Positions 61 to 53,134 of a stretch of 64,000 bases of DNA are shown one piece after another. The stretch covers positions 24,177,823 through 24,241,822 of the forward strand of contig OZ018408.1 of the NCBI GenBank assembly GCA_963969595.1, given 5' to 3'. Every line of letters starts with the position of its first letter. Within the stretch, counting starts at the first letter, position 1. A program made the translations under genes and the position numbers. The DNA is from Neckera pumila (Eukaryota; Streptophyta; Bryopsida; Hypnales; Neckeraceae). The notes beneath the pieces are model-generated. The model did not search any database and was not told the origin of the DNA. It saw nothing but the letters and a program-made list of their open reading frames with translations.

Positions 61-1069
61 CCTCTAACGTTCTTTGACTATGATTTCACCAAAAATGCTG
101 AAAAATTGCCATTTTTAGAACAAGTATCAAATTTTTGAATTTTTTTTTGACACTTATAACCGTAGGATCTTGTAGTATGTTTTCTGACTTGAAAACATGT
201 GATAAAAATTTCAGAAATTTCCACTGCTTGGATTGCAAGATATAAGCATTCAAATTCAGCGAAATCATTTTTTTGGCCCCGCAAAAATAAGGCAACTGCA
301 CTTCACAAGCTCACTATCTATGTAAAAATGTCCAAAATGATTTGTGCTTCTTTGGATTCTTTTTTCTAGACAATTGGCACATGCTTGAAAATTTTCACAT
401 CATATGGAATTGTATAACATATAGGAAAAAGAGAGTAACTGCAAAGAATGATTCAAAATACGAAATTGTTAAAAATTTAATTATGGAAGTAAGTGAAAAA
501 TGCCAATCTCAATAAACAATCTACATCCCATGGATTTTTTTTTTCAAAAAAATTGAGTAAGATAAAGGACTTATTTTAGAATAGATAATCCAAAACTGCC
601 CACAAGCAAAAATTCCTCATAACTTTTGACTCATTGATCAAATGTAATGATTAAAAGATTTATATATTTATATAAATCTAGAAAACCCATTTAAATTTTT
701 GTTTTATGAAAAAAATGATTTTTTTAAAAGTTGCCCGAACTACTCGGTAAACAAACTACATATCATGCAATATTTTTTGATTAATATTTCCAAATGTCAT
801 GAAATTTAGTGTGTATAAAAGGTATTCCTCATCCCCACCTTCTATTAAAATTTGGGCCAAAAATATAGAAATCTCTAGTTACACGTACTTGCCCAAAATT
901 CTATATATCTTATCTCTTCAATGCTCTTATCTCTTCATTGTCCAGCCCTTGTGGCTTGGCTGCTTTGTATTGTGGGGTTTTTTCTAATGCAATGAATCTT
1001 TCCATTTGTTCAAGAAAAAAAAGAAAAAAATCTATGTAGCCCAAAACCCCCATGTTGGTCTTTTAGGGA
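61..1069 (+). mobile_element. piggyBac-like TTAA element, subtype D...C (E1)
   Basis: Non-coding element flanked by TTAA at 57-60 and 1070-1073. The left end (CCTCTAACGTTCTTTGAC) matches the left end of the element at 27,934. The right end (inverted) matches the left end of the element at 33,316, including the GGACCAACATG subterminus. It is therefore a D-type left half joined to a C-type right half. It is interrupted near its right end by a short A-tailed insertion (905-1030). There is no reading frame worth calling, so it is non-autonomous. The superfamily name rests on the TTAA duplication and the CCC(C)TAAAGG terminus; no transposase was seen. Confidence 0.8.
905..1030 (+). mobile_element. 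5'-truncated LINE/SINE-like retroposon scrap
   Basis: A stretch of about 126 bp breaks the right arm of the surrounding TTAA element. The arm runs into CTAT at 901-904 and resumes with CTAT at 1032, giving a TCTAT duplication (900-904 and 1031-1035). The insert ends in an A-rich tail (1014-1030) and is preceded by a T/G-rich 3' region like those of plant L1 LINEs. Tail plus duplication indicates target-primed insertion. The specific family is inferred. Confidence 0.6.
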
Positions 1070-1073
1070 TTAA

Positions 1074-1740
1074 TTGACCTTAGGATTCACCTTGTCGGAT
1101 CTAAGAAATTATAAATATGGATCCATGTTATGATACCTTTTAGATTATATCAAGACCATGAAAACACTACATTCATTTGTCGTATTAGTGTGTATAACAC
1201 TAGTATACCAAAGTTTCATTTTTGAAAAAATAAATGAATTAGTGCATTTTGAAAATATGATTGTTTTATACCAATTTCTATACAAACGAAAGAAGAAAAA
1301 ATTAATAAACACTACTAGCGGAATTGTATAGGTGACATGAACTTTGCACCTTCATTGATAGGACAAATTGTTGCATTAAAAACATACAAGGAGCAAACCA
1401 AATAAATGACCTAGGCCAAGAGAGGAATTGCTACTAGTCTAAGTTAGCATAACTCATTGTCATCCTTTGATTGTTGCACATATTTTGATAAATATAATTC
1501 ACAATTTTGGGGGATAGAGGAACAACAAATCAAAGTATTTTTTACATCATTGTATTTCTATTAAATCATTTTTTAGTTTAAAAAGACATTGATTATAGGT
1601 GGTCAAAGCAAAAATATATAGCTGCCCATTGTTGTCTCTAGAGGAGGAACTATTCTTGTCCATTTAGATCCTAATGTTTTTTTTTAACTTCGTACATGAT
1701 TGCACTAACGACAAAGAATCTTTTTACGTAAGACGTAAGT
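1074..1740. other. intergenic, nothing recognised
   Basis: AT-rich sequence without a credible open frame, RNA gene or paired termini. Confidence 0.5.
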
Positions 1741-2429
1741 CACTACTAGAAAATGATGTCCAAATCAACAAAAAATCATCAAATTTTGGTTGAATTGAGC
1801 CCTATATCAACCATTTTTACAGTTTTTTGTTGATTTGGCACAAGGTAACACAATGGTTACAAATTGTTTGTTGATTTGGGCAGTACAACGTCCAGATCAA
1901 CAAAATAGTCAACATTTTTTTATTCATGTAGACTTACAAAAGTTTTAAATAAGTTTTTGACACTCGAACAATGTTTAAATCCCCACGGTTGGATTCTATA
2001 TACAATTTTTATGTTATTTTTATTTTAATCATTCATAATTTAGTATTTTTTGAGCTCAACAGACTTTGCTGTCCGTTTTGGCATAGTCAAATAAGTTTCT
2101 TGAATAAACTTTGAACTAAAAAAAGTTATCAAATCAAGCTAACTTTCATCTTCAAAATTTGTTTAGGATTTGGACCTTTCAATCAAAAGTTATAGACAAA
2201 ATTCAAAGGGGGGTTGAAATGGACATTTTCTTTGACATATTTAAATACCCTCTCTGAATTTTGTTGGCCGTTGGCAAAAAATCTCACATGTCCAAATCGA
2301 CAACCGAATCATCAAATTTTTGTTAAACAATGTTTAAGCCAACTTGACTGAAGCTACTCTAGACTGTTATCGATTAGAGCGATTTTTTGTTATTTTTTTG
2401 TGAAATTGGTCGCTAAGTTTCTAGTAGTA
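1741..2429. mobile_element. CACTA-type miniature element
   Basis: The left end reads CACTACTAGAAAATGATG. The right end, inverted, reads TACTACTAGAAACTTAG, with the last G of the expected TAGTG changed to A. Inside are scattered subterminal words containing ATCAACAAA and its complement, the kind of short repeat found at CACTA (En/Spm) ends. No coding region is present. A clean 3-bp duplication is not visible, so the copy is probably old. Confidence 0.6.
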
Positions 2430-2454
2430 ATTGCAACTATTCATCTTCAAAAGT

Positions 2455-3010
2455 TTTATGAAAAAGAGAGGTCTTGAATAGTAGTTTGACTTCCAATGAA
2501 TGCTTTGGCATTTTTTTAAGCCAGTGATTCACACAATACCAGGAGGGATGATTTCCACGGTCACCAACCCATTCTCTAAAGGTTAACCCTAAAAGGACGG
2601 ATTGATCACTGTGGAAATTAGCCTTTTTAGTACCATATGAATTATTTGCTTAAAATAATCCAAAAGCTCTAATGGGAGGTCAAACAATTGTGCAAGACTA
2701 CCCCTTTCTACACAAAGTTTAAAGGATGAACATTTGCACTTCTGTCTTTTATAGAAGGATTCTTTGTCATCTATTGAACATTTAGTATCAACGGGGTTAC
2801 AGGATTAATCCTAGAAGGACGGGCTCATTACCATGCAAATCAACCATTTTGGTATTATGTGCATTATTTGCATAAAAAAACAAAAGCACTCGTTGGAGGT
2901 CAAACTATTGCTCAAGATTTCCCCTTTTTACATAAAATTTCAAGGATGAAAATCTGCACTTCTATCCTATGTAGAAGGATTTCCTATCATCTATCAAATA
3001 CTTTGTGTTT
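2455..3010. repeat. foldback repeat plus duplicated arm
   Basis: The segment 2,462-2,560 is the inverted counterpart of 2,605-2,720, around a small loop. The arm at 2,632-2,790 is repeated directly at 2,852-3,002 (shared words such as TGCACTTCT, GTAGAAGGAT and GAGGTCAAAC). A related copy lies inverted at 49,925-50,110. The loop contains TTAACCCTAAAAGGAC, which resembles the TTAA-element terminus. No coding potential. Confidence 0.55.
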
Positions 3011-3119
3011 GTGGTGTCCTTTTTATGGTTATGTTTATCCATAATTTTGAAACAAATTGAAAAGCAAAAGGACAAGAGATCCTTTACATCGTATGAACAA
3101 GGTACAATGACGACTAAAC

Positions 3120-8030: not shown

Positions 8031-8032
8031 TA

Positions 8033-9218
8033 AGGTAAAAGACCCCATTGCGGTCAGAATTAGGAGTGTGTACTCATACCATTGCTGAAAATTTTCAAAT
8101 TTTTTTCCACACAAAGATAAGTGTGAGAGACAATGGAGACATTTGAAATTATATTTTTTGGACCAAGTATGAATTAGTTCTAAATTTTTAAAGTGATCAG
8201 CCCATAGGGGTTTGTAGGCTACCTTATGACCAACAAAATCTGAATCCAATATAGTCGTCTTCCTACCCAATGCAGTCAGAACATTTTCAAATATGGAAGA
8301 CCTAAATATTCAATTTTTACAAAGAATTTTACACTAAAAAGTTGGAAGTACCTATTAACCCTTAAAGGACCAAGCACCGTTTTTTGGCAACATAGCAATT
8401 TTGGGCAGCTCACTACAGATGGAGTTTTTATTTTTTTTCTTTGAAAATTTTACATAACATGTGCCCAAGGAGTAGCTTTAAGGCCCAACAATTTTCGTAG
8501 CTTTTGACTATACGGTTAAAAAGTTATTGCATGATATGTGATTTTCATTGGATGGCGGGCAGCCCGGGCAGCTCCAAAAACTTCTTTTAAAATGACTTTA
8601 AAAATAAATAAAAACCTGAAATTGGTTCTTTAGATTTATATAGAAGTGTGAAGCTTTGAATCATTCAATTTAGATCTATGAGTCAAAAGTTATGAGGATT
8701 TTAAGTTTGTGGGTAGGTATGGTTTTGAAAGACTCCATACCTACCCTCAAACTTAAAATCTTCATAACTTTTGACTCATAGATCCAAATTGAATGATTCA
8801 AAGCTTCAGACTTCTATATAAATCTAAAGAACCAATTTCAGATTTTTATTTATTTTTAAAGTCATTTTTAAAGAAGTTTTTTTGAGCTGCCCGGGCTGCT
8901 CGCCGTCCAATGAAAATCACATATCATGCAATAACTTTTTAACCGTATAGTCAAAAGCTACGAAAATTGTTGGGCCTTAAAGCTACTCCTCGGGCACATG
9001 TTGTGTAAAATTTTCAAAGAAAAAAAATAAAAACTCCATCCGTAGTGAGCTGCCCAAAATTGCTATGTTGCCAAAAAATGGTGCTTGGTCCTTTAGGGGT
9101 TAAGGTCACTAATTACTCCATAACTACCATGTAAGGCATTGGTTGTAGTCTGAAAAACCGCAATAGGGTCAGTAGGTGTCCATCATGGGCAATTTGACCG
9201 CAATGGGGTCTTTTACCT
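8033..9218. mobile_element. TA-flanked element hosting a nested hairpin
   Basis: A terminal inverted repeat of about 24 bp (AGGTAAAAGACCCCATTG outward, continuing CGGTCA) lies at 8,033-8,056 and inverted at 9,195-9,218, with TA on both outer sides. TA duplication suggests the Tc1/mariner group. The interior is non-coding and is split by the 741-bp palindrome at 8,359-9,099; without it the element would be about 440 bp. Confidence 0.65.
8359..9099. mobile_element. TTAA-element hairpin, subtype C...C (E2)
   Basis: Flanked by TTAA at 8,355-8,358 and 9,100-9,103. The left terminus is CCCTTAAAGGACCAAGCACC; the right is its inverse. Both arms (about 360 bases each) are nearly identical when inverted, meeting around 8,730. 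Each arm is the C-type half found once in the elements at 61, 27,934 and 33,316, so this is a double-right-end derivative. A transcript across it would fold into long double-stranded RNA. Confidence 0.85.
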
Positions 9219-11379: not shown

Positions 11380-11814
11380 GGTGTGGATATTAAGTCTAAA
11401 ATTTTGGGAGATTGTATTTGAATAAGTTTAACAAAGGATATTATGGTTGGATTTGTTAAAATATAAATATTGATGAAGATTTTGCAATTGCTTTGTGGAC
11501 AAGTATTTTGAAGCAGTTTTGGGATTGTAAACATGTTGGTCCTTTAGAGGTTAAAGGACACAGCCACCCACAATAAAGGTAGTCATCCAAATTGCTATAA
11601 TTATTGCACCAATAGGTGCATTCTTTATTTCTACAATGAACAATGAAGTCATTCATTGACCACTTTTTAGCCTCAACATCCTTCAAGCCTTAAAGGACAA
11701 TTTTGTTCATGGCAAGGCAACTCCAATAATCTTGTATGAAATTTTAGGACATGGGCATGTGTAATTGATTGAGTAGTTCAACAACTAGATAAATGAAAAT
11801 AATGAGCTTAATAA

Positions 11815-12323: not shown

Positions 12324-14175
12324 CCCCTAAAGGACCAAGGCCCTTTTTCTGCCAAAAAACACTCAAAATTGTCATTTCTATAGCAAAAAGTAAAAAAAAT
12401 TGAAAAAGTTTTTTTTTTCACATCTAATCATAGAATCTTACACCTAACTAGTATGAGAGTGTGTGGGAAAAATTTCAGAATTTTTGACCACAAAGATTGC
12501 AAGATATCTCCGTTTAAAGTGAAAGAAACAAGTTTTCAACACATTGTGGGACTTGATTTTTTGACTTTGAACATTTTTAACTTAAAATTTTTGCACTACA
12601 GAATTTTGAGCTTCAAATATTTGTGTTGGAGAATTGACTTGAGAGTTTCAAAAAAAATAAAAAATGAAAAAGATTAATTATCGTTCTTTAAAAAATTGTT
12701 AAGTAGAAGTAGTTACGAGATAGAAGGAAAATCTAAAGTATTCATATATTATAGATGGAATTAAAATGCACTAATCCCAATGGTGAGATTGTTCTAGCAA
12801 GTAATATAAACCATGAAAAAAAATTGAAAATTTTTAAAAATTGCATTCAGAAATGCATATTAAAAGTTATTTTTTTCAAAAAGATGCTTAACCCCTAAAG
12901 GACCGGTTGTCCCCTCGGGGGACAATTTGGGTCCGGGCAGGTTCCTACGATCTCAATTTTTAGTAATATTTTTTGGGATTTTTTGAGGTTGTGTATTTTT
13001 GCGAGATCTTTGTGAATATATAAATTTTTATTTTAATTGATGCCCGGGAGAAAAGTTATGGCACAATAAGTAAAATTGGAATTTTGCGGGAAGCCCAAAA
13101 AAAATCACAAAAAGTCAAAATAATTTTTTTTCAAATTTTTCCCTCAAAGATTATATTTTTGTCTACATGTGAAGCTTTGTTTCATTCAATTTGGACTAAT
13201 AATGAAAAAGTTATGGACAATCTTAGTTTTTCGGGCAATCTAAGCATCTTCTTGAAAAAATAACTTGTAGAATTCATTTTAGAATGCAATTTTGAGAATT
13301 TTTCAATTTTTTTTGTTAGACAGGATTAGATTTTTTTGCTAGAACAATCTCACCGTTGGGATTATTGTGATTCAAAGCCATCTAAAAGCTATTAACAATT
13401 TAGATTTTTCTTCAATCTTGTACCCACTTCTACTTAACAATTTTTTAATGAGTGAAAATTAAGTGCTTTTTTTCCTAAATTTTTTTGATAGATTCTCAAC
13501 TCAATTACTTAACATAAGTAAGTAGAAAATCGAAATCAGTAGTGCAAAAAATTTGAACTAAAAAGATTCAAAGCCAAAAAACCTAGTGAAGCAAGGTGGG
13601 AAAAAAACTTGTTTTCTTCACTTTAAATGCATATATCTTGCAATCTACGTGGTCAAAGTTTCTGAAATTTCTTCCACATATTCATATACTAGTCAAGTAT
13701 AAGATCTTACAGTTGGATATGCAAAAAAAAACAATTTTTTAAACTCTTTTTTCCTTGCAATAGAAATGACAGTTTTGAATGTTTTTTGGTAGGAAAATCA
13801 CCTTGGTCCTTTAGGGGTTAAACTGCCCGAAAAACAAGAACGTCCATAACTTTCTCATAACAAATCCAAATGAAATGAATCAAAGCTCTCCAAATAGACA
13901 AAAATATAATCTATGAGAAAAAAATATATAAAAAAAAAATTCCAATTTTTGTCCATTTTTTTGCTACTTGGGTTGCCCGCCGTCCCCTGTTTTGAGCTTA
14001 TTTGGTCATAACTTTTTTTCCTGGGTACCAATTGTAAAAAAAATTATATTCCCACAAAGTTTATCAGTTTTTCTATCTTCAAAAAAAATTTCAAAAAATC
14101 ACGACAAAATTTCAGCCTGTAGGTACCTGCCCAAAATCCCAAATGTCCACCGACTCGACAATGGTCCTTTAGGAG
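12324..14175 (+). mobile_element. piggyBac-like TTAA element, subtype A...B (E3), split by a nested copy
   Basis: TTAA at 12,320-12,323 and 14,176-14,179. The left end CCCCTAAAGGACCAAGGCCC is an A-type half; the right end (inverted CTCCTAAAGGACCATTGTC) is a B-type half. A second member (12,892-13,817) sits inside; removing it leaves an element of about 925 bp collinear with the one at 17,360. It is non-coding. Confidence 0.85.
12892..13817 (-). mobile_element. nested piggyBac-like element, subtype B...A (E3n)
   Basis: A 926-bp element, CCCCTAAAGGACCGGTTG at left and TTGGTCCTTTAGGGG at right, bounded by TTAA at 12,888-12,891 and 13,818-13,821. It interrupts E3 between GATGC and ACTGCCCG. The undisrupted relative at 17,360 reads GATGCTCGAATTGCCC at this point, so the junction is confirmed. 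It is closely similar to 52,206-53,134. Confidence 0.88.
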
Positions 14176-14334: not shown

Positions 14335-14734
14335 TAGAATTATGGTTTTGTATATATGGTTTTCAAAGATTCATAAACTACCCACAAACTAATACTCCTC
14401 ATAACTTGCATCTCATTAATCAAAATGGAATGATTTAAAGCTTTGCACATACATATGAATTTAGAAAACCAATTTCAATTTTTTAAATTTTAAACAAAAA
14501 TGATTTTTAAAGAAGTTTTTTGAGCTGCCCGGGTTGTCCACCAAATAATGAAAATTATATATAATGCAATAACTTTTTAACCTTGTAGTAAAAAGTTATG
14601 AAAATTGTTGGGCTTTAAAGTTAATTTTTGGACACATGTTTTGTGAAATTTTCAAAGAAAAAAAATTTTCCATTTGTAGTGAGCTTCCTAAAATTGCTAT
14701 GTTGCCAAAAAAATGCAGTTTTTAAATTTAGGGA
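14335..14734 (+). mobile_element. C-type right half of a TTAA element, 5' truncated
   Basis: The right arm matches the C halves at 8,359 and 28,868 (CTATGTTGCCAAAAA, GCTGCCCGGGTTG, TTGGGCTTTAAAG) and ends with TTTAGGGA before TTAA at 14,735-14,738. The left half is missing. The left limit is approximate. Confidence 0.7.
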
Positions 14735-14739
14735 TTAAA

Positions 14740-15334: not shown

Positions 15335-16246
15335 CCCCTAAAGGACCATTGTCCCTTCGGGGGACAAATGGGATTTCAGGCAAGTACCTATAGGCTAATT
15401 TTTTATTGTAATTTTCTAAAACTTTCTTTGGAGACAGAAAAACTGACGGACTTCATGGGAATATAATTTTTTTTCAATCGATGCCTCGGAACAAAAGTTA
15501 TGCCCAAATAAGCTCAAAAAAGGGGAGAGGGGGCAACAAAAAAAATTAAAAAAAAATTAAATTTTTTTTTCTGTGTAGATTATATTTTTGTCTATTTGGA
15601 AAGCTTTGATTCATTTTATTTGGATTTTTTTTATGAGAAAGTTATGGACAATCTTGTTTTTTGGGCAATTAGAGCATCTTATTGAAAAAAATAACTTGTA
15701 GGATTCATTTTGGAATGCAATTTTTGCAGTTTTTCAAGAAAAAAAGTTCCACATTGTTTAGTTTTTGTGCTAGAACAATCTCACCATTGGGATTAGTGCA
15801 TTTTAATTGCATCTAAAAGATATTAATATTTTAGATTTTCCTTCTATCTTGTACCTACTTCTACTTAACATTTTTTTTAAGAATGAAAATTAAGTTTTTT
15901 TGAATTTTTTTTTTTTTCGTAGACTCTCAACTCAATTCTCCACTATAAAGATTTAAAGCTCAAAACTCTGTAGTGCAAAAGATTTAAGTTAAAAATGTTC
16001 AAAGTCAAAAAATCTAGTCCCGCAATGTGCTGAAAATCTTGTTTTTTTCACTTCAAATGCATATATCTTGCAATCTGTGCGGTGAAAAATCCTGAAATTT
16101 TTTGCACACACTCTCGTATTAGTTAGGTATAAGATCCTTTTGTTAGATGTTCAAAAAAAACAATTTTTAATTTTTTTTACTCCTTGCTCTAGAAATGGCA
16201 GTTTTAAGAGTTTTTTGACAGAAAAAAGGCCTTGGTCCTTTAGGGG
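15335..16246 (-). mobile_element. piggyBac-like TTAA element, subtype B...A (E4)
   Basis: TTAA at 15,331-15,334 and 16,247-16,250, 912 bp. The B end carries the subterminal palindrome GTCCCTTCGGGGGAC. The A end reads GGCCTTGGTCCTTTAGGGG. The interior is collinear with 12,892-13,817 and 52,206-53,134. It is non-coding. Confidence 0.88.
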
Positions 16247-17359: not shown

Positions 17360-18477
17360 CCCCTAAAGGATCAAGGCCATTTTTTTGCTACAAAACACTC
17401 AAAACTGCCAATTCTATAGCAAAGAGTAAGAAAATTTGAAAATTGTTTTTTTTGTACATCTAAAATTAGGATCTTATACCTAAATAGTATGAAAATGTGT
17501 GGAAAAAACTTCAAAAGTTTTGATTGCAAGATAATTGCATTTAAAGTGAAAAAATCTAATTGTAGTCAACACATTGCCAGACTAGATTGTTTGACTTTGA
17601 ACCTTCTTAACTTTAATTTTTTGCACTATAGAGTTTTGATCTTTAAATCTTTATAGTGGAGAATTGAGTTGAGAGTCTAAGAAAAAAGTAAAAAAATAAA
17701 AAAAACTTAATTTTCATACTTCAAAAAATTGTTAAGTAGGTACAAGATAGAAGGAAAATCAAAATCATTAATATCTCTAAAATGAAATTAAAATGCACTA
17801 ATTCCAATGGTGAGATTGTTCTAGCAAGAATCACTACAAGAGAATGGGGTGTTTTAAATGAGTTTTAAAATATAATCCTAGACATAAGATTTTAAATAAT
17901 GACCTTTAAGGTAGTTTTAACAAAAATTTACTAGAAATACATGTGTTTTTGCTGAAAATTGCCTTAAAGGTCATTACTTAAAACCTTATTTCTAGGACTA
18001 TACTTAAGAACTCACTTAAAACACCCCATTCTCTTAGTGAAAACTAAACCATGTAGAATCTTTTTTTTTTTAAAATTGTAAAGATTGCATTTAGAAATGA
18101 ATCCTACAAGTTATTTTTTTCAAGAAGATGCTCGAATTGCCCAAAATACAAAATTGTCCATAACTTCCTCATAACATATCCAAATGGAATGAATCAAAGC
18201 TTTTCAGATAGACACAAATATAATCTATGAGAAAAAAAAAATTTAATTCAAATTTTTGAATTTTTTTTATTGCCTCCTCTTCCACCCCTTTCCAAGTTCC
18301 AAGCTATTTGAGGCATAACTTTTGTTCCTAGGCATTGATTGAAAAAAGATTCCCACAAAGCTAATCATTTATCTATCTTCGAAAAAAAGTTTCAAAAAAT
18401 TAGGACAAAATTTCAGCCCGTAGTTACCTGCCCAATATTTCCATTTGTCCCTTGAAGGGACAATGGTCCTTTAGGGG
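17360..18477 (+). mobile_element. piggyBac-like element, subtype A...B, with ATAA duplication (E5)
   Basis: Termini CCCCTAAAGGATCAAGGCC and, inverted, CCCCTAAAGGACCATTGTCC. Instead of TTAA the flanks are ATAA on both sides (17,356-17,359 and 18,478-18,481). It carries a 208-bp CACTA-like MITE at 17,832-18,039. The remaining approximately 910 bp is collinear with E3. It is non-coding. Confidence 0.85.
17832..18039. mobile_element. palindromic CACTA-like MITE
   Basis: Begins CACTACAAGAGAATGGGGTG and ends, inverted, CACTAAGAGAATGGGGTG. The arms continue as an inverted repeat almost to the middle (GACCTTTAAGG / CCTTAAAGGTC). It lies inside the A half of E5: related elements read GCAAGAA-type sequence straight into AACTAAAC-type sequence here. 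Termini suggest CACTA; the 3-bp flanks (AAT/AAA) nearly match. Confidence 0.65.
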
Positions 18478-22961: not shown

Positions 22962-23327
22962 CCCCTAAAGGCTCAAGGCCTTTTTCCTGCCCAAAAACAC
23001 CCAAAATTGCTAATTTTATAGCAAAGAGTAAAAAAAATTAATTAATTAATTTTTTTTTTGCACATCTAACCATAGGATCTTACACCTAATAAGTATGAGA
23101 ACGTGTGGAGAAAATTTCAGAATTTTTGACTGCATAGATTGCAAGATATCTGCGTTTAAAGTGAAAAAAACAAATTTTTTAGCACATTGCGGGACTAGAT
23201 TTTATGACTTTGAACATTTTTAATTTAAATGTTTTGCACTACATAATTTTAAGCTTTAAATCTTTATAGTGGAGAATTGGGTTGAGAATCTAAGAAAAAA
23301 AAAAAAAAATCCAAAAAAACTTAATTT
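22962..23327 (+). mobile_element. A-type half of a TTAA element, 3' truncated (E6)
   Basis: Starts after TTAA (22,958-22,961) with CCCCTAAAGGCTCAAGGCC and follows the A half of E3/E5 for about 365 bp. It then stops abruptly at about 23,327, where GC-richer sequence begins. No right half is present nearby. Confidence 0.75.
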
Positions 23328-25130: not shown

Positions 25131-25138
25131 GGTTTAAT

Positions 25139-26462
25139 CCCTAAAGTCCCATTGTTTCCTTGCGAGACAAATCAAATTTTGGGCAGGTTACTACGGGCTC
25201 AACTTTTAATAAAACTTTTTGAAACTTTTCCATAAGATAGAAAAATTGATTAGCTTTGTGGAAATATAATTTTTATTTCAATTAAGGCCCAGGAGCAAAA
25301 GTTATACTACAAAATGCCTCAAATTAAACTCGATGGGTAGCACAATTTTTTTTGCAAAAAGCCAAAATAAATTTTAATTTTGTTTTTTGCTCAAGCTTTA
25401 TACTTTTGTTTACATGTGAAGCTTTGATTCATTTTATTTGGACTAATAATGAGCAAGTTATGGACAGTCTTGTTTTTTGGGTAGTCTAAACATTTTTTTG
25501 AAAAAATAACTTGTAGGATTCATTTCTAAATGCAATTTTCACAATTTTTTACAATTTTTTTTTTGAGAATGTTGTGTTTGCTTGCTAAAACAATCTTACC
25601 ATTGGGATTGTTGTATTTCAATCCCATCTAAGAGCTATTAACGATTTAGTTTTTTTCCAATCTTGGACCTACTTCTACTTAACAATTTTTTAAAGAATGA
25701 AAATCAAGTGTGTCATTAGAGAAATTTTCAGCCCTAAAGCGGGCCGTCCAAAGTTGACATGCCATGCTATTCTTCACATGGCCTGTCAACTTCAAAAATG
25801 CTCTTGGTGAGCAGTCAGAGTCTCTAACTGCTCGCTGGAGCAGTCAAGTTCCGCAAAATTTTTACTTCTTTTTTTTTCTACTTTTTTTTTTACTTCTTTT
25901 TTATTGATTAAATTTATTTATTTATTTATTTATTATAACAACTTTTTATTCAGAATTCTGGGTTCCTGCGCCACTACGGCTGCAGTTTCAACAGGGCGGA
26001 AATAGGGGAAAACAATTTTTTGAGCAAAATAAAAGCAAATTTCAGGGTACCTCGGCGGGCAGAGAGGGCTGTGGAGTAGCCCTCCAGAGGCCTGAAATTT
26101 CCTCTAATGTTTTTTTTGAATTTTTTTTCATAGACTTTCAACTTACATCTCCAAAACAAAAAAAATTTAAATTCAATGTCTGTAGTGCAAAAAATTTCCA
26201 CAAATGGTGGTCAAAGTCATCTGAAATTGCAGGTCAGTGTCCAAAAAAAATTTCATTTTCAACTTCGAATGCTAATATCTTCCAATCTATACGGTCCCAC
26301 TTTTCTTGAAATTTTTACCACATGATCTTTGACAAGTGAAGTACAAGATCCTATGGTTAGATTCTAAAACAAATGTTTTTTTTTTGTGTTCTTGGGTGAA
26401 CGCAACCAAAATAGCAATTTTGAGTGGTTTTTGACAGAAAAATGGCCTTGGGACTTTAGGGG
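25139..26462 (-). mobile_element. piggyBac-like TTAA element, subtype B...A (E7), with insertion
   Basis: TTAA at 25,135-25,138 and 26,463-26,466. The B end starts TCCCTAAAGTCCCATTG, somewhat diverged. The A end is GGGACTTTAGGGG. It is 1,324 bp because a 396-bp CATTAG-family MITE (25,714-26,109) is inserted; net length 928 bp, as in other members. Confidence 0.82.
25714..26109. mobile_element. CATTAG-family MITE, copy 3, nested in E7
   Basis: CATTAGAGAAATTTTCAGCC at left and, inverted, CATTAGAGGAAATTTCAGGC at right. Comparison with E3n, E4 and E10 shows continuous sequence (AAATTAAGTG into poly-T) where this element sits. The interior holds GAGCAGTCAGAGTCT-like direct and inverted words shared with 20,314-20,642. 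Confidence 0.75.
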
Positions 26463-27933: not shown

Positions 27934-28868
27934 CCCCCAAAGGGTTTTTGACTATGTTTTCACAAAAAATGCTCCAAAACTGCCATTTCTTATACAAGTA
28001 TCAAATTTTAAGAATTTTTTTTTTTTGGACACATGTAACCATAGGATCTTGTAGTAAACTTGTTTGAGAAGATGTGGAAAAAATTACAGAATTTTCCACC
28101 GTGTGGATTGCAAGATAATAGCGGTTGAATTGGCAAAAATCCTTTTTTTGTCCCTGCAAAAAAACGGGCAGCTGCCCTTCACAAGGTCACATTTGTATGA
28201 GAAAATGTCCAAAATGGTGGTTACTCTTTGGATTCATTTTCCTAGACAAGTTGGATACATGCTTGAAAAAATTCAAATCATTTAGAATTGTACAACATAT
28301 AGGAAAAAAATAGTAAGTAGGAAGAGGTAGAGAATGATTCAAAACACTAAATTGTTAAGAATTTATTAATGGAATTGAAAAATGCCAATCCCAACGGTTG
28401 CAATGTTGTAATAAACAATCTACACCCAAGGTTTTTATTCTTTTTCAAAAATATTGAAAATTGAGTGAAATAAAGGACTTCAAAGTTTATTATAGAGTTG
28501 AGATTCCATAACTACCCTCAAACTAAGAATCCTCATAACTTTTGACTCATAGATCCAAATGGAATGATTCAAAGCTTCCCACCTACATATAAATCTAAAG
28601 AACCAATTTACATTTTTATTTTTTTTAAAAGTGATTTTTAAAGAAGTTTTTTTTTCTGCCCAGGCTGCCCGTCGAGCAATGAAAACAACATATCATGCAA
28701 TAACTTTTTAATCCTGTAATCAAAAGTTATGAAAATTGTTGGGCCTTAAAGCTACTCCTCAGGAAAATGTTATGTGGAAATTCCAAAGAAAAAAAAATAA
28801 AATCCTCGCTCATAGTGAGCTGCTTCAAAAAGCTATGTTCTCAAAAAAGCATGTTTAGTGCTTCCGGG
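27934..28868 (+). mobile_element. piggyBac-like TTAA element, subtype D...C (E8)
   Basis: TTAA at 27,930-27,933 and 28,869-28,872, 935 bp. The left half matches E1 (TTTTTGACTATG, ACTGCCATTTCTTATACAAG). The right half matches the C halves (GGCTGCCCGTCGAGCAATG, TTGGGCCTTAAAGCTACTCC). The right terminus has decayed to TTCCGGG. It is non-coding. Confidence 0.85.
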
Positions 28869-32650: not shown

Positions 32651-32664
32651 ACTCTTAAATCCTC

Positions 32665-33311
32665 TAGGGGTTAATGCTACCTACTGTATATTCATTCTAT
32701 AGTTGATTAGTCACTTGAAACACTTGACTTTAGTACAAGGACAAGTTATCTAATGAAAAGTCCATGTGCTTGACAAAAACTACTTAATTTATGCCGAATC
32801 TAAACCTTAGGTAGGATCATTCCCCAAAAGTTTAGTGTTATTACGACGGGACGTACTAATGAAATTTTTCCATTAGTATAGCTTAATATGTACCAACAAA
32901 AACTAATGTAAGAATTAGACCCAAGCAAGCCAAGGCCAACAAGGCTAGGGAGGTGATATTGAGTAATAGATTCATTGAACCTAGTGTATGTTTTTTGGCA
33001 ATCTATCGCACAAATATGGCTTCCCTCAAGCCATTGAGACAAGTATATAGGAAATTTAGGTTTTTTATTTATTGTATTTTTTCAAGTCCATCCAAGGAAG
33101 GGTTGCGAATTACCCAAGTGCTTTTCATTATATTGATGTATGAAATACACATAGAAAAATACAGCTAAATATAGTATAAGAGGTATTTTTACACTATATC
33201 CCAATTGGTAGAGTGTGTGAGACTTGAGACTTGGGACATAGTGTTAAGCCCCATGTCCCAATTTTCAGCTCTCTAACAATCAGATTTTGAGAATTTAGTG
33301 AGACTTGGGAC
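32665..33311. other. intergenic, nothing recognised
   Basis: AT-rich spacer before the next TTAA element. Confidence 0.4.
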
Positions 33312-33315: not shown

Positions 33316-34215
33316 CCCCTAAAGGACCAACATGCGTTTTTTGGCAACATAGAACTTTTGGACAGGTACGTGTGATTGAAATTTTTATAGAAGGTGGGGA
33401 CAAGGAATATCTTTCATATGCACCAAAATTCATGACATTTGGAAATACGAGTCAAAATTTATGGCCTAATATGTTACTTTTTTTTGTAACCGGACAGTTT
33501 GGGTAGATCAAAAAAACTCTCTTTTTCAAAAATAAAAATTTGAAATTGGTTTCTTAGATTTATATATACATGGAAAGCTTTGAATCATTCTATTTTGATC
33601 AATGAGTCAAACATTACAAGGATTTTTAGTTTGCGAGCAGTTATGGATTGTCTACTCTAAAATAAACTTTGAAGTCGTTTCTTTCACTCAATTTTTAATA
33701 TTTTTCAAAAAAAATAAAATTTCAGGATGTAGATTGTTTATTACAACATTTCAACCATTGGGATTGGCATTTTTCAATTCCATAATTAACTTCTTAACAA
33801 TTTAGTGTTTTGCACCATTCTCTACTTCTTTCTACTTACTATTTTTTTCCTATATGTTGTACAATTCCAAATAGTCTGAAAATTTTCATGCATGTAGCCA
33901 ACTTGCTCTGAAGAATGAATCCAAAGAAGCACAACCGTTTAAGAATTTTTTTCATAATAATTTGACCTTGTGAAGTGCAGCTGCCCAGTTTTTTGCAGGG
34001 CCAAAAAAAGGACTTTTGCCACTTCAAACTCTAATATCTTCCAATCTACATGATGGAAATTTCTAAAAAAATTTCCACACATTTCCAAACCAAATTACTA
34101 CAAGATCTTATGGTTACATGTGTCCAAAACTGATATTTTTCAAAAATTTGGTACTTGTGCTAGAAATGGCAGTTTTGGAGCATTTTTGGTGACAACAGTC
34201 AAGGAACTTTAGGGG
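33316..34215 (-). mobile_element. piggyBac-like TTAA element, subtype C...D (E9)
   Basis: TTAA at 33,312-33,315 and 34,216-34,219, 900 bp. It starts CCCCTAAAGGACCAACATGC (C half) and ends GTCAAGGAACTTTAGGGG (D half). It is the same kind as E1 and E8 in opposite orientation. It is non-coding. Confidence 0.88.
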
Positions 34216-43800: not shown

Positions 43801-46800
43801 CTCGACAACTTGCTGCCTGTAGCCAGATGACAACCCTTCATCCTCCAGCCACTTATCCGCAATGTCGTAAGGATTATCTACAACAGGTATTCATCAACAA
43901 ACAAAAGATGGCTTCAGAATGAGTATCAATTCTAGAAATCCAAACCTAACCAGAAAGGGCAAACATAAATCTGAAACAAAAAGGGCAAGTCAAAGCTTAA
44001 CATGCGGTGAACTCCTGCAACCAAATTAACTTATGTCAAATTTACCTCCAACATTGTAAGGTAACTTTCGAGTTGGTAAACCATCACCAATATCCACGTC
44101 AAACACTGCAACCACCATATACAATACCTCCATCAATGCCTCTGCATGTAACTTGAAGGCATGAAACTGCATCTTAGAAAGCCAATTAGCACAAGTAATC
44201 TACTGGGACAGACAACATACCATAATCGTAAGTAACACCATGCAGGGTCTTGGTCTCAGCTTTGTTTCCTGGTCCGTCTACCACTTCTCCAATCTACGAG
44301 GTTTATGATTACATTAGTAACAGCGATACTTCATCCTTCAGCACAGACTCAGATTCTTCACAACTGTAGCTCCTAAATCCTTCAATCTCACATACTGCTA
44401 AAAATGAAAAGTAGCAGATTTCAGCAAAGTACCTTATCCCACTTGTACTCATTCAGGTTCCAGGAGTAAGCAACCCCACTAGTACCCTCCCTCACAATCC
44501 GCGTTTGACCATTTTTAGTCCCTGAACATTCACCCCAGGAGTCACTGTCAAGAAGAGACGTTTTGGCAAGAGAAAGACACAGTCCACCATTTGCGAACTA
44601 CAAAAACCGTATACCTCTAATCCTAACAAAGACATTGATAAGGCATTAGACACAAGCCATAAGACCGCACAGACATTACCAGTACTGCGCCAAAAGGGGA
44701 AAATTTCTAAGACGAACAGATTTTCCAGATATGCAATCAAATCTAATGGAAGCTAATGTGAGCTAATGATCACGTACCAGGTTCCTGCAGAGCTTCAACG
44801 CCCGGTAAGTCCTCCACCTTAACCCCTCCTACTGTTTTTCTGAAAAATCGAAACCATAAGCATAGTGATTAATTCCCTTTCCGTTTTTTTCAGTTGATGG
44901 ATTCTACAGAGTTGACATATTTGTTGCATAAATTTAAACATGCTTGAAGGCAATCACCACTAGTACTGAGAAGTCTAGAGTATTATAAAGCAGAACACAG
45001 CATGATACGCAAACACCAAAGAAGGGACAGGAAACCAACGCTGCAGATTTGCGAGATGATACGAGAGAAATAAATGCTTCCGTCTCTTCCGTTGGAGCAT
45101 AGAGCTTTTTCTCACGAGTCCACACACGGGCCACACCATCTGAGCATGCTGTAACCAAATCTCCATTTGGCAGGAAGGTCACATCCCAAACACAGCCTGG
45201 GTGCTCAATGCTCTGGACACAAACGCCCCCTACAAACAAAATTGCCTAACGTAAGCTACAATTCATGTAAAACCCCAGCATCCCACCGCAGTTCGTCCAT
45301 AAAGCACGCTAATTGGACCATAGAAATGGCATTAAGGAAAACTTAACAGTTCGTTTACTTAAAAATATCCAGTTCCTCCTGCTTGGTGAAATGCAAAACA
45401 TCAAATGAAGATGCAAGAACCTCTCCAAATTTTGGCGAAGCCATCTTCGCTTCCAGATGCTATGTCGCCGGAAGAGTGTGCAGCAACAGAATACACAATT
45501 GCAGTGTGGCCCACTAATTCCAACAGCTGCTCTCCACTCAAAGCCCACAACCTCACTGACCTGTGATATCACGAGCCCACAATCATGAAAATCCAGCTCT
45601 AAGGTGTATCCAGCAGACCGAGTGAGTGCCTTCAATGTCAATTATTTCCATAAATTAAAAACCCCACAATTGAGGTCATATTCCACGATAATTGCTATTT
45701 CATGGCTATACAAACTGACCTAGTTCGAGTATGTAGCAGCATATTACTATAATAATTCTCCAAAAGTAAAGCATAGCAACTGACAAAAGCCTTAGGTAGA
45801 GACTTACCCATCATGTGAAGCAGAAACTATTCCAACGCTGGGCATTATTGCAAGGCCACGAACAGTATCTGCAGACGACCACCCAAGCTCAGAACAGTAA
45901 AATCTAAGGCAATCAACGACTTACAAAATTCACCATCATTATTACTTGTGTCTGACCAACTGCTTGGAAAACCTCACTCTTACCTTCGCGTATCCACGGC
46001 CAAGCCATTCAATCGTATTAGATGCAGTAATAGTTGCAACCTCTAAAACATGAAACAGATCCCTGTTTTGGAAGGTGTAACGAAATGCTCTCAAGAACGT
46101 TCCAAGAATGTTAACCTTAAGAGGCGAAAAACTGCTTCTGAGGTAAGAGGTGCTTCTGAGGAAGGATCCTCCAAAAGACCACAAAGACTAACAGAAAGAC
46201 AGCATTCTATTTCCTTGTTTCTAAAATTAGTTCAGGCTAATCAACACATCTGTGTCAGCAATGCAACGCTATGGCCCAAGTTGTTGTTTTTCAAGCTAAA
46301 TAATCGCTATAATAGTGACGACCAACCTGTGTGGCCACGGATTGTGCTAACACACGTTGAACCTCGCCATAATTTCATAGTTGTATCACTCGAGCCTGTC
46401 ACAACTTCACCGCTAGGCAATGGAAGCACCGCTTGAACAGGCCCATCATGACCTTGCAAAACCTCGACTACTTGCCCATTCCGCCACCTCCGCACTGTGC
46501 TGCGATCCATGGCAAGAACCAAGTAAAGCCACTCGTCAGTGAGCAATTAAACCACTAAACACCACACGACCTACAAAGTGACTGGCACAGAGCTGGGTCC
46601 GCTTAGTCTAACTACATCAAGACAGAGGAGCCGTTAATCAACGTTGCAGGTTGCGTTTCAAAGTGGAAAAAAATATAAAAAATACAAATCATGAGAGGGA
46701 TGCCATCAAAATAACGATACCTGTCAACGGATGCAGATAAGATATCACCATTAGAGTCAACAGCTACGTCACTGACTTGTAGTTTATGTCCTTTCATATC

Positions 46801-48428
46801 ATTCGCAATGGCAGCTTTCTCGAGATCCCATACCAAGACACGAGTATCCATTCCTCCAGACACTAGGCCTCCGGCGGGTAGAGATTCAGTCGGTGAAATC
46901 CAAGCCACAGTGCCCACGAAGTTCGTATGTCCAACTAATGTCTTGTCTAAGTTATACTCTCTCTCGCCTTGTTTGGAGTCCCAAATCCTCACAGACTTAT
47001 CTCTCGAGCCTGTTGCAATAACTCCATCATGAGATACTCCTAAACCTCGAACCTGTTGACACGAGCAATCGATGGCGTGAGCTTCAAAGCAATTCCCAAA
47101 CTTATGCATGGACTTTCCAATATAAAATTTCAGATAATTCGTCTGACTATCAAGTCGACCAGCACCTGTTCTCGAAGACGAGGCTAACCTTTCTCGAAGG
47201 TCTCGAAGAGCAGAAGAATATACTAAGGTCATCAGCCTGTATTAAAGATCGGAGTTCTTAATGAGCTTGAAGAAGACAATACTCAAGCTCAGTAATTTAA
47301 AGAATTCGGTACCAATTCACGTCTAGCATTTGAACAATAATCTTGTATGGCAGCGGGCAGAACTTCTGTAAAGGTCTAAAACTTAAGCACTTCATCTCAT
47401 AAGTAGTATTGACTTGACTGTTTTGAAGGTGAGAATCGATTTGATTAAGATTGAAGTACTAATTTGAGATATGGCAAAATTCCAGAATATAACCAATAAA
47501 CCCTAAACCTAAATCTGCAAGTCAAGGCCCCTGCTCGATTGCGACGACGATTGGAAACTGTAGATTCAAAAATGAAAGCAGCAATGAAAAGCATGCCAAT
47601 CGAGACGAAAAAGCAGAACTCACTACAGGATCAGTCGCTAGAAGAGTTCTCATCAAGCAAGAGGGTACACAAAAGCAATAAATCAATGTCCAACCATTGA
47701 ACTCGAATCTTATTTTCCTTCAGCATCACAGCAAGCAGCATCCTCAGTAAAGGTCTAAACTAAAACTCTTCCTCGTATCATAAGGGTCACTGCATTGATT
47801 TGGATCGTCTGAGCTTCAGACTGAAGAGAACCGATTTGAACAAACGTCGAAGATGAATTTAGAAGTGCAATAAACTAAACTTCCAGAATTCAAATATAAA
47901 CCCTAATTCTAAGTCGGTATATGATAAGATCCCTCCTGGAATGCGACGATGATTGGAAATTGCGGATTCAAAAATGATATCAGCAATGAAAACCACGCCT
48001 CGAGACGAAAGAACTCGCTTCCTCCTCATCTCATGACCAGTACTGACTTGACATCAATCTTCTGAGCTTGAGACTGAAGAGAACCTATTAGATAACTTCA
48101 AAGTACTAATTTTGATTTGCGATACAGTAAACCTCCAAAATTCAAACAATAAACCCTAACCCTAAATCTTCATGTCCACGATCCGTGCTTAATTGCGACG
48201 ATGATTGGAAATCGTAGATTCAAAATGAGAAAAAAGCAATTAAGGATATGCAAAGAAATTAGATACAAAAAGACTAGAATCAATTCAGGACCGAAGGCAA
48301 CAAGAGCTCGCATCAAGGCAGACGGTGCAAAGATGCAATAAAATAATTTTGAAATTGGAAGAGCTTACATCTTCCTCATGCCCAAAGAGTTGGCATCGAA
48401 GCGTATACTGCGGTGACTCCTCCCCCAT
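40816..48428 (-). CDS. PLAA: PLAA/DOA1 (UFD3) homologue: WD40-PFU-PUL ubiquitin adaptor
   Basis: Twenty-one exons: 48428-48369, 47052-46721, 46499-46327, 45868-45808, 45560-45421, 45229-45040, 44839-44778, 44521-44433, 44293-44221, 44105-44046, 43877-43735, 43578-43531, 43211-43147, 42931-42845, 42713-42548, 42336-42259, 42047-41911, 41761-41695, 41505-41436, 41208-41153, 40944-40816. All junctions are GT-AG and phases match; total 2,286 nt, 761 residues, within the family's usual length. Residues about 1-290 form WD40 repeats (LFGHEEDV, LVGHTNFVGTVAW, SGSEDGFAKIW). About 330-440 is the PFU ubiquitin-binding domain (VREGTSGVAYSWN, YDYVFDVDIGDGLPTRKLPY, YRQQVVEFILQN). About 490-755 is the PUL armadillo domain that binds Cdc48/p97 (YKHVPMKGMLFFDAAQFEGI, FRALVALGTL). 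Role by homology: presents ubiquitinated cargo to Cdc48 and supports ubiquitin recycling. The start MGEESPQYTLRCQLFGHEED fits family N-termini. The exon 6 donor is the least certain junction. Confidence 0.95.
47390..48300. repeat. three degenerate tandem units in intron 1 of PLAA
   Basis: The intron holds three imperfect head-to-tail copies of a unit of about 250-400 bp. Landmarks recur in order: CTCATAAG/CTCATGACCAGTACTGACTTGA, GAAGAGAACC, TCCAGAATT/TCCAAAATT, AAACCCTAA (47,499, 47,898 and 48,151), then GCGACGATGATTGGAAA (47,541, 47,943 and 48,195) and CAATGAAAA. Each unit contains one AAACCCTAA telo-box. Confidence 0.75.
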
Positions 48429-50939: not shown

Positions 50940-51551
50940 GTAAACCCAACGGTTTCCTTTTCCAAATGGTAAAATGAATGATGTTCTATCTTGTGCTGAT
51001 CAAGAATAGAAGAAAATATACCTCTGGATTGTATCATGCTACCTACGTTGTTTTGAGTTTTATGTTCATCCCTAATCCATGTTGATATGTTCTGCTTCCA
51101 ACCCACTCCAGAGTGTTTTGGAGTAAGGTAAACCAGCCTAAAGCCGCCAGCTTCCTATTTCCGCCATCCTAGTTTTGGTCCCATTTCCATCACTACACTC
51201 ATCCAACTCCACTCACTTTCCTGACAAAATCAGAGCATTGATATCATCAAGACTAATGTGTCAATTTTTCATCGGTCCATACTTACGTGCTAATAGATAC
51301 ATGGAAGGGTGGTTATGGGTTGTTGGTTTGATGTTTATGACTCCAGTCTACAAGTGGTTTTATAATTTCAGGGTTGACACTTCAAAAATTCACAGAAATT
51401 ACAATTTTGATTGAAAAATTATAATTCCACTTGGGTTTGATTTGCAAAACAAGCGCACACCTCTAAAAAATACATGCCCTTCTTGGAATTGGTCCCAATA
51501 TACTCAGATTGCAAATCAGGGTGGTAATAAGCTTGTCTACCTTATGAGGAA

Positions 51552-52150
51552 CATGAAAAGTTCACGTCGATTGTTGATTTTTCTCGCTCTGACCCATCAA
51601 TGCTGGTGATGCCAGGGCTAGCTCTGTCTCACGCGGAGTACTCAGCTCTGCAACTAATGATCTGCAATCTTCTACAATAGATCTATCATCAGATGCACTC
51701 GCACCACTCTCTGCAGCAGCAGCAAGATCATCCTTGCTTCTAATGTCGGCATTTTTCCTCTTGTTTTGGAGGAACCAATCTGGATGGTCATGTTGCTAAT
51801 CTAAAATGGAGAAAATTGCTATAAGACAGTCACCACATTAAATGACAAACCAAGCTATTTCTAAGCTTGATCTGTCACTCTGAAAAAGTACTGCAGTGAA
51901 CAGTCAGTCAATCTGACTGCTCACTGAAACAATTAGATTTTGTGATTTTTGCTCTTGATCTATAGGAGATTCTCCCAATAGGAGATTCTCCCAAGTGGAC
52001 TGTTTGGGTGAGTGACCCGGAACAAATCCAGTTGCGAGGATCCACAAGGGCTCCTTCTCCTTTGGAAGATGGGCTAAAATATTCATCATAGCCCACAACA
52101 TTGTAGAACACTTCTTCTTCCTCAAAGAATTTCAACAACTAAGTCCAGAT
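51552..52150 (-). pseudogene. possible exon pair of an unrecognised gene
   Basis: On the minus strand, 52,140 to about 51,975 stays open with a protein-like segment (KFFEEEEVFYNVVGYDEYFS, SSKGEGALVDPRNW). After an interval, 51,789-51,552 reads QHDHPDWFLQNKRKNADIRS ... DDRSIVEDCRSLVAEL and ends at TGA, preceded by an AG acceptor. The composition looks coding, but no family is recognised and no start exon was found. It could be the 3' part of a gene, or a fragment. Confidence 0.35.
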
Positions 52151-52205
52151 GAACTTCATTGACGTCAAATGAGGCAACACAACAAAAAGTTGGTGATATT
52201 AGTAA

Positions 52206-53134
52206 CCCCTAAAGGACTAGTTGTCCCCTCGGGGGACAATTTGGGTCCAAGCAGGTTCCTACTATCTCAATTTTTTGTGATATTTTTTGGGATTTTTTTA
52301 GGTTGTATATTTTTGCAAGAGCTTTGTGAATATATAATTTTTATTTTCATTGATGCCCAGTAGCAAAAGTTATGGCATGATAAGCAAAAATGGAATTTGG
52401 CGAGCAGCACAAAAATAATCACAAATTAAAGGTCAAAATAATTTTTTATTTAATTTTTTGATTCAAAGATTATATTTTTGTCTACATGTGAAGTTTTGTT
52501 TCATTCAATTTGGACTAATAATGAGAAAGTTATGGACAATCTTATTTTTTCGGGCAATCTAAGCATCTTTTTGAAAAAATAACTTATAGAATTCATTTTT
52601 GAATGCAATTTTTAGAATTTTTCAAAAGAATTTGTTAGACAGGGTTAGATTCTCTTGCTAGAACAATTTTGTCGTTGGGATTATTGTGATTCAATTCCAT
52701 CTAAAAGCTATTAACAATTTAGTTTTTTCTTCAATTTTGAATCCACCTCTATTTAACAATTTTTTAATGAGTGAAAATTAAGTGATTTTTTTCCTAATTT
52801 TTTTTGGTAGATTCTCAACTCAACTACTTAATATAAATAAGTAGAAAATCAAATCAATAGTGCAAAAAATTTGAACTAAAAAGATTCAAAGCCAAAAAAT
52901 CTAGTCAAGCAAGGTGGAAAAAAACTTGTTTTCTTTACTTTAAATGCATATATCTTGCATTCTACATGGTCAAAGTTTTTGAAATTTCTTCTACATATTC
53001 ATATACTAGTCAAGTATAAGATCTTACGGGTTGGATATGCAAAAAAAACAATTTTTTAAACTCTTTTCTCTTTGCAATAGAAATGACAGTTTTGAGTGGT
53101 TCTTGGTAGGAAAATCACCTTGGGCTTTTAGGGG
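52206..53134 (-). mobile_element. piggyBac-like TTAA element, subtype B...A (E10)
   Basis: Right TTAA at 53,135-53,138; left flank GTAA (52,202-52,205), one base off. The B end carries CCCCTAAAGGACTAGTTG and the palindrome GTCCCCTCGGGGGAC. It is 929 bp, collinear throughout and closely similar to the nested E3n at 12,892-13,817. It is non-coding. Confidence 0.88.

What the first reader, a model, noticed from the sequence alone, without database searches (positions are those of the whole stretch)
61..53134. A TTAA-flanked, piggyBac-like non-autonomous family with at least twelve members in one window
Elements at 61, 8359, 12324, 12892, 14335, 15335, 17360, 22962, 25139, 27934, 33316 and 52206 share the terminus CCCCTAAAGGACC (or close variants), and nearly all lie between TTAA tetranucleotides. 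TTAA duplication with CCC-type termini is the signature of piggyBac (established knowledge). To my knowledge this superfamily is rarely reported in land plants, so a dense family in a plant nuclear genome would be notable. No transposase is encoded here.
Basis: partly seen in the sequence, partly recalled or inferred. Interest (0 to 1): 0.9.

Follow-up and report, generated by a model that had tools for sequence, protein, structure and literature searches.

The report
PiggyBac transposons swarm a moss genome
The window holds about a dozen non-coding copies of piggyBac-type jumping genes from a moss chromosome, and the same genome carries thousands more of their ends plus enzyme genes of the kind that could move them, a well-supported case of abundant natural piggyBac elements in a land plant.

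Summary
In detail: ten of the twelve listed elements have two ends, two (14335, 22962) are truncated, and 12892 is nested in 12324. The window lies in a 339.5-Mb moss assembly (matK 93% to Campylium stellatum, Hypnales). Exact TTAACCCCTAAAGGACC occurs 12,107 times (reversed control 0); the 13-mer alone 13,867 times. PF13843, the piggyBac transposase domain, gave 872 first-look candidates; the 116 scored pass the cut-off. In 12 of 20 loci examined the transposase lies between TTAA-(C/T)CCC ends; in families A and B (5 of the 12) the ends resemble the window's. The enzyme aligns with piggyBac at three catalytic Asp. Two nested insertions compared with paralogues fit TTAA duplication. The left end carries a palindrome at bp 15-35, where piggyBac's Cys-rich domain binds, with different letters in different families (PMC7351741). 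Mobilisation of the window's copies by these enzymes is inferred. It is a large new member of a known superfamily, in a host group for which my searches found no description.

The parts
61..1069 (-). type-2 element, 1009 bp, TTAA both sides; left window end decayed (CCTCTAACGTTC)
   Evidence: 73.6% to 33316 over 856 bp
8359..9099 (.). type-3 fold-back element, 741 bp, two near-identical arms of about 365 bp, TTAA both sides
12324..14175 (-). outer type-1 element (922 bp without its insert), TTAA both sides, interrupted by a nested element plus one extra TTAA
12892..13817 (+). nested type-1 element, 926 bp; its TTAA copies are 12888-12891 and 13818-13821; paralogous empty site compared
   Evidence: 90.5% to 52206
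14353..14734 (.). half of a type-3 element, decayed right end GGGA followed by TTAA at 14735-14738
   Evidence: 79-81% to one arm of 8359
15335..16246 (+). type-1 element, 912 bp, TTAA both sides
17360..18477 (-). type-1 element, 1118 bp, flanked by ATAA on both sides, carrying a foreign insert of about 210 bp at about 17831-18040
22962..23327 (-). truncated type-1 element, one end only, TTAA at 22958-22961
25138..26462 (+). type-1 element, 1325 bp, tips (T/C)CCCTAAAGTCCC as in transposase family B; right end 77% over 298 bp to the right end of a family D transposase locus; TTAA both sides
27934..28868 (-). type-2 element, right end decayed, TTAA both sides
33316..34215 (+). type-2 element, 900 bp, TTAA both sides
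52206..53134 (+). type-1 element, 929 bp, flanks GTAA and TTAA
48754..48800 (+). TTAA plus a left end of the family E type with the palindrome AGCGACCATTTTCTGGTCGCT; partner end not looked for further

Best explanation
The elements are non-autonomous piggyBac-superfamily transposons of a moss. They keep the unlike left and right ends that a piggyBac transposase needs: a shared tip of about 13 bp (CCCCTAAAGGACC), in type 1 a left end with a palindrome at bp 15-35, and a different right end. They have no gene. Transposases encoded by related 5-7-kb elements elsewhere in the same genome would bind both ends in trans, cut them out with a TTAA hairpin intermediate, and insert them at TTAA, duplicating it. 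Shown: the ends, insertions that fit TTAA duplication, transposases between related ends, aligned catalytic residues, a Cys-rich tail in families A and B, genome-wide numbers, and 98.8-99.4% identical transposase copies on different contigs. Inferred: that those enzymes move these elements, that the palindrome is the Cys-rich-domain site, and present activity.
For: 12,107 exact TTAA+13-mer ends, control 0; 13,867 13-mers, control 6; 413 with A/C/G before TAA. The 116 scored PF13843 hits pass the cut-off. 12 of 20 transposase loci have TTAA-(C/T)CCC ends on both sides of the gene: A L014, L018, L024, L026; B L010; C L013, L016, L022; E L012, L015, L023; G L019; two more family B copies have the same ends. 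PDB hits at E<=0.01 are only piggyBac 6x67 (8.7e-26) and piggyBat 9c0f (5e-25); D553, D644 and D762 of the L018 frame align with D268, D346 and D447 (positions counted by hand). Cys-rich tail in L010, L014, L018, L024. Empty-site comparisons. Type-1 window ends match A, B and D ends. Left palindrome at bp 15-35 in families A, B, C, E and G.
Against: No transposition was observed. None of the fetched transposase elements is the direct parent of a window element; mainly the ends match. Type-2 and fold-back left ends (33316, 61, 8359) lack the palindrome. In one search, restricted to matches beginning within 40 bp of the tip, 33316 and 61 matched no transposase element's end; 27934 matched one right end (163 bp, 71%), 8359 only the first 32 bp; the 61 element matches right ends of A, B and D only from about bp 68-137 inward. 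8 of 20 transposase loci were not seen with both ends (6 one end, 2 none). Many of the ends were found by patterns that contain TTAA, so their TTAA flanks are partly built in; family A and C limits agree with where copies stop being alike. My motif and tail patterns found nothing in family C. TTAA is not perfect in 2 of 10 window elements.
Confidence: 0.95

Rival explanations
1. Another TTAA-duplicating superfamily (Kolobok, Sola3) made the window elements, and the resemblance to the piggyBac ends is convergence.
For: TTAA duplication alone does not single out piggyBac (recalled); window bodies do not match the fetched transposase elements inside; type 2 is linked to them only weakly.
Against: For type 1, homology of both ends to piggyBac transposase elements with the same left-right asymmetry, right end up to about 300 bp. 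I did not search for Kolobok or Sola transposases.
Confidence: 0.03
2. They are PIF/Harbinger or Tc1/mariner MITEs whose 3-bp or 2-bp duplication only looks like TTAA, because TTAA can be read as T-TA-A.
For: The empty-site comparisons cannot by themselves tell 4-bp from 2-bp duplication; element 52206 (GTAA/TTAA) fits a shorter duplication.
Against: The outer T is nearly fixed genome-wide: 12,107 T against 413 A/C/G before TAA. Element 17360 has ATAA on both sides, which fits a 4-bp duplication. The partner enzyme is PF13843.
Confidence: 0.01
3. The family is piggyBac but extinct: all copies, transposases included, are relics.
For: By my eye count about 35 of the 116 rows show no stop in the domain, the rest do; the Cys-rich tail lies behind a stop in L018 and was not found in one piece in L026; window elements of one type are mostly 67-90% alike.
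Against: Three 7.3-kb copies on three contigs are 98.9-99.4% identical, three 5.4-kb family C copies 98.8-98.9%; L010 and L024 have frames open through domain and tail.
Confidence: 0.25
4. The lineage entered mosses recently by horizontal transfer from an animal or fungus.
For: PiggyBac is best known from animals (recalled); the one relative with an organism name is from a sea anemone (32% identity).
Against: Transposase domains in this one genome differ down to 38.6% amino-acid identity from the two used as queries, and closer relatives (50-65%) come from sources without organism names, so residence looks long. No taxon-labelled tree was made.
Confidence: 0.1

Closest known systems
piggyBac of Trichoplusia ni (PDB 6x67/6x68)
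   Same: Catalytic core with aligned DDD, C-terminal Cys-rich domain, TTAA target, CCC tips (recalled), unlike left and right ends, palindromic internal repeat at bp 17-33 of the left end (PMC7351741 passages) against bp 15-35 here
   Different: Elements are 5.4-7.3 kb, not about 2.5 kb (recalled); longer N-terminal part; the T. ni right end also has the internal repeat, while none was found at bp 15-35 of the moss right ends; in family A the gene points the other way relative to the ends than in B, C, E and G
piggyBat of bats (PDB 9c0f)
   Same: The only other PDB relative by sequence (E 5e-25)
   Different: Vertebrate host (recalled); its ends were not compared here
piggyBac-related MITEs of animals, e.g. 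those of two coral genomes (PMC2872659; only title, abstract start and term counts in the listing seen)
   Same: Non-coding elements linked to piggyBac and TTAA (term counts; details recalled)
   Different: Moss host; about 740-1330 bp here; exact ends in the thousands
PiggyBac in other land plants (PMC6890710 Ceratopteris repeat table; PMC4438587 Table 2; passages)
   Same: Same superfamily label
   Different: Ceratopteris: 1230 fragments, 0.00% of the assembly; no element anatomy in the passages seen

Membership tests
piggyBac superfamily | DDE_Tnp_1_7 transposase (PF13843) between the element ends | tested here: met
   12 of 20 loci with TTAA-(C/T)CCC ends on both sides; family G rests on one copy. 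The window elements themselves carry no transposase
piggyBac superfamily | Catalytic triad D268/D346/D447 | tested here: met
   alignment of the L018 frame (D553/D644/D762), positions counted by hand; motifs found in families A and B; the same motif search printed none for family C, and E and G were not examined
piggyBac superfamily | C-terminal Cys-rich domain | tested here: met
   L010, L014, L024 and, behind a stop, L018; not found in one piece in L026 nor in family C; E and G not examined
piggyBac superfamily | TTAA target duplicated on insertion | tested here: met
   paralogue comparisons; 12,107 of 13,867 13-mers follow TTAA; TTAA on both sides of the 14 two-ended transposase copies, partly circular because most ends were sought with TTAA in the pattern
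piggyBac superfamily | Tips of CCC type in inverted orientation | tested here: met
piggyBac superfamily | Asymmetric ends with palindromic internal repeat | tested here: met
   left ends of A, B, C, E, G and of type-1 window elements (weak in 25138 and 12324); not met in 33316, 61 and 8359; not found at that place in the right ends tested
piggyBac superfamily | Footprint-free excision | not testable with these tools
   needs excision in cells or a population sample
non-autonomous partner of moss families A, B, D | Mobilised in trans by that transposase | not testable with these tools
   inferred from shared ends
Kolobok / Sola3 | Own transposase between the ends | not tested
   no search with those families was run

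The most novel reading that the evidence does not exclude
Mosses host a long-resident, diversified and still mobile radiation of piggyBac transposons, with at least six transposase lineages and more than ten thousand non-autonomous copies in one genome. In it the left-end palindrome stays at bp 15-35 while its sequence changes between families, so each Cys-rich domain appears to have evolved its own cognate site.
Probability: 0.6. Interest if true: 0.75.

Novelty: new member of a known kind. Interest (0 to 1): 0.62.

Why it matters
PiggyBac is a widely used tool in animal cells (recalled) and has been imported into rice as a moth-derived tool (PMC10905368 and PMC4309413, passages; PMC5505980 notes it was untested in P. 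patens). A native plant set, with several diverged enzymes and their ends, would give plant-derived transposases and a natural series of Cys-rich-domain/palindrome pairs for studying how piggyBac recognises its ends. It also shows that the superfamily can expand strongly in a land plant, where the papers I could search mention it only in passing.

Tried and rejected
Pfam on six frames of the longest window element, stops as X: one match at E 0.09, below its cut-off, taken as noise. Rfam (gathering) and ARAGORN on the window: nothing. The 20-mer in the GTDB contigs and the 17-mer in IMG/VR: none. First look with 1.5-kb flanks around transposases (L001-L008) found no ends with TAA and up to 3 mismatches; 10-kb stretches did. 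A match at the start of L004 looked like an end beside the transposase but faces the wrong way and is decayed. One search read L026 out of frame and is not used. One search's stricter palindrome search printed none for the left end of G and showed A/T-rich inverted repeats deeper in some right ends (e.g. bp 71-99 in L014); the bp 15-35 test was set up. Paper searches showed no description of such elements in mosses; the hit in PMC10619864 is 'expression piggybacking'; PMC8859630, on two Hypnales genomes, is not held. A count of TTA+non-A before the 13-mer was asked for six times and not answered.

Extrapolation, not a count: 100 listed exact ends on C1 make 11 neighbouring pairs under 1.5 kb, i.e. 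89 elements per 100 ends, so about 10,800 elements with at least one perfect end if the first 3.5 Mb of C1 are typical.
Full report
OBSERVATION. The shared terminus is real and far beyond chance: 18 sites with up to 2 mismatches against 0.76 expected, and 22 TTAA-preceded sites with up to 3 mismatches against 0.19. I sort them into three shapes. Type 1 has one end with TTGTCCC..GGGACAA or a decayed form of it and another starting CCAAGG (12324, 12892, 15335, 17360, 22962, 25138, 52206; 22962 has only the latter). Type 2 has CCAACATG at one end and TTTGACTATG or a variant, then CACCAAAAATGCT, at the other (61, 27934, 33316; one end of 27934 is decayed). Type 3 is a fold-back of two near-identical arms (8359, and half of one at 14353), with folding energy -406 against a mean of -76 kcal/mol in 20 shuffles. 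The sorting is mine; type 1 and type 2 bodies are weakly related.

EMPTY SITES. Element 12892-13817 sits inside 12324-14175. Two paralogues of the outer element, 15335-16246 and 17360-18477, align through the insertion point without a gap once the insert and one TTAA are removed; in the TTAA columns they read TCTA and TCGA, so they fit in length but have no TTAA themselves. The 5626-bp transposase element in L010 sits inside a type-2-like element; the paralogue in L023 reads ...TTTATTTAATTCAATTTTC, with one TTAA, where L010 reads ...TTCATTTAA[element]TTAATTCAAATTTC. Such sites alone cannot tell a TTAA from a TA duplication, but the outer T is nearly fixed genome-wide: 12,107 TTAA against 413 with another first base before TAA.

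HOST. The C2H2 gene at 35.5-39 kb has its best named matches in mosses, Ceratodon first at 42% over 93%. The matK on contig C18 is 93% identical to a cluster named for Campylium stellatum, Hypnales. The genome is 339.5 Mb in 18 contigs. I take the host to be a pleurocarpous moss; the species is not established.

GENOME-WIDE FAMILY. Exact TTAACCCCTAAAGGACC: 6010 + 6097; reversed control 0 + 0. CCCCTAAAGGACC: 6913 + 6954; control 2 + 4. The first eight exact ends on C1 resolve into seven elements; in 7 of 7 an opposite-facing end with TTAA (sought with up to 3 mismatches to the 17-mer) lies 0.7-1 kb away. Among the first 100 ends, 11 neighbouring pairs enclose 739-938 bp and two pairs enclose 8.0 and 9.3 kb; those two were not examined.

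TRANSPOSASE ELEMENTS. PF13843 gave 872 first-look candidates; 116 were scored, each over the curated cut-off, best E 4.6e-80; the tool's 14 control genomes gave none. I fetched 10-kb stretches for 20 of the 116. In 12 of 20 the transposase lies between opposite-facing TTAA-(C/T)CCC ends: family A (L014, L018, L024, L026; 7215-7324 bp), B (L010; 5626 bp), C (L013, L016, L022; about 5.4 kb), E (L012, L015, L023; about 6.8-7.3 kb), G (L019; about 5.5 kb, one copy only). Two more family B copies have the same ends and TTAA. In L009, L020 and L025 (family D) I saw the right end only; in L021, L027 and L028 one weak candidate; in L011 and L017 none. Most of these ends were sought with TTAA in the pattern; for A and C the limits also agree with where copies stop being alike. 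L018, L024 and L026 are 98.9-99.4% identical over their whole length on three contigs, and L013, L016 and L022 98.8-98.9%, which points to recent amplification.

ENZYME. Four frames from A and B hit only PF13843 in Pfam at E<=0.01 (8e-75 to 5e-81). By sequence the only PDB relatives at E<=0.01 are piggyBac and piggyBat; the three catalytic Asp align. The Cys-rich tail is present in L010, L014 and L024, and in L018 in the same frame but behind a stop; it was not found in one piece in L026. L014's frame also has a stop before the domain. My patterns for motifs and tail found nothing in family C, whose domain region is 39-41% identical to A and B.

LINK TO THE WINDOW. Comparing 300-bp ends, keeping matches that begin within 40 bp of the tip: type-1 window left ends match family A and B left ends over 34-96 bp at 72-94%, plus two weaker matches of 91 bp at 68% and 177 bp at 67%; type-1 right ends match A, B and D right ends over 48-304 bp at 67-88%, the best being 25138-26462 with D (298 bp, 77%). 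Types 2 and 3 are linked less well: 27934 matches the B right end (163 bp, 71%), 8359 the A tips over 32 bp, 33316 and 61 none under that filter. The tip CCCCTAAAGTCCC of family B recurs in 25138-26462. Window site 48754 carries a family E left end. Inner parts do not match, so the window elements are not simple deletion products of the copies I fetched.

A SHARED LEFT-END DEVICE. In T. ni piggyBac the Cys-rich-domain dimer binds a palindromic internal repeat at bp 17-33 of the left end; the right end also has the repeat (PMC7351741, passages). Each of the five moss families with both ends has a palindrome of 19-21 bp, perfect only in C, at bp 15-35 of one end: TTGTCCCCTCGGGGGACAA (A), TTGTCCCTACGGGGGACAA (B), CGAGGACACAATGTGTCCTCG (C), AGCGACCATTTTATGGTCGCT (E, L023), GGGGACACAATTTGTCCTC (G). 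Shuffle frequencies over the eight elements tested are 0 to 0.019 for left ends and 0.13 to 0.96 for right ends at the same place (window set; copies of a family are not independent, and A and B differ little). Of the six two-ended type-1 window elements four keep it (15335, 12892, 52206, 17360; at most 0.004) and two weakly (25138, 0.04; 12324, 0.075). The left ends of 33316, 61 and 8359 lack it (0.91-0.99); 27934 was not tested. That the palindrome binds the moss Cys-rich domain is an inference.

MECHANISM. Shown: ends, target, insertions that fit TTAA duplication, enzymes between related ends, near-identical copies. Inferred: binding of both ends in trans, hairpin intermediate, seamless excision, reinsertion at TTAA, as established for piggyBac.

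WHAT IS KNOWN. PiggyBac is listed among superfamilies found in all groups in a survey that includes land plants (PMC4438587) and tabulated as a trace in a fern (PMC6890710); the abstract of PMC10813416 says it has been isolated from plants (passages). Rice and P. patens papers use or discuss piggyBac as an imported tool (PMC10905368, PMC4309413, PMC5505980; passages). My ten searches listed no account of native moss elements; most subscription papers are not held and supplements could not be read, so a repeat table elsewhere may list them.

VERDICT. A true, abundant member of the piggyBac superfamily in a moss. It is not a new kind; the scale, the diversity of enzymes and the position-fixed palindrome make it worth a specialist's time.

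Noticed in passing
window 8359-9099: Near-perfect 741-bp hairpin of two about 365-bp arms; if transcribed, a possible source of small RNAs against the family.
   Followed up: partly
window about 17831-18040; L028 8690-8918 and 9184-9403: An element of about 210 bp with ends CACTACAAGAGAATGGGGTG / CACCCCATTCTCTTAGTG inserted in the 17360 element; relatives at 80-85% in L028. CACTA-like by its tips (recalled).
   Followed up: no
window 2583-2599, 11538-11554, 32658-32674: Single piggyBac-like ends with TTAA but no partner end seen, probably remnants.
   Followed up: no
L013 1990-1993, L016 2056-2059, L023 1599-1602: Elements lie back to back, sharing one TTAA, as if inserted into the TTAA of an older element.
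   Followed up: partly
L014, L018, L024, L026: In family A the transposase gene points towards the palindrome end, the reverse of B, C, E and G; the element also contains a 684-bp imperfect inverted repeat.
   Followed up: partly
L009 7897-10000, L020 7494-8197, L025 7453-9550: Tandem repeats with a period of about 349 bp that start at the TTAA of the family D right end.
   Followed up: no
L023 9348, L015 699: Family E elements lie beside or within type-1-like sequence, further possible empty-site tests.
   Followed up: no
window 35533-39024 (+) and 42465-47241 (-): Host genes: a C2H2 zinc-finger gene whose named relatives include a Marchantia IDD-like protein, and WD40 and PFU exons that suggest a PLAA-like gene.
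   Followed up: partly
G000:C18: The assembly's contig 18 carries matK and is probably the plastid genome.
   Followed up: partly
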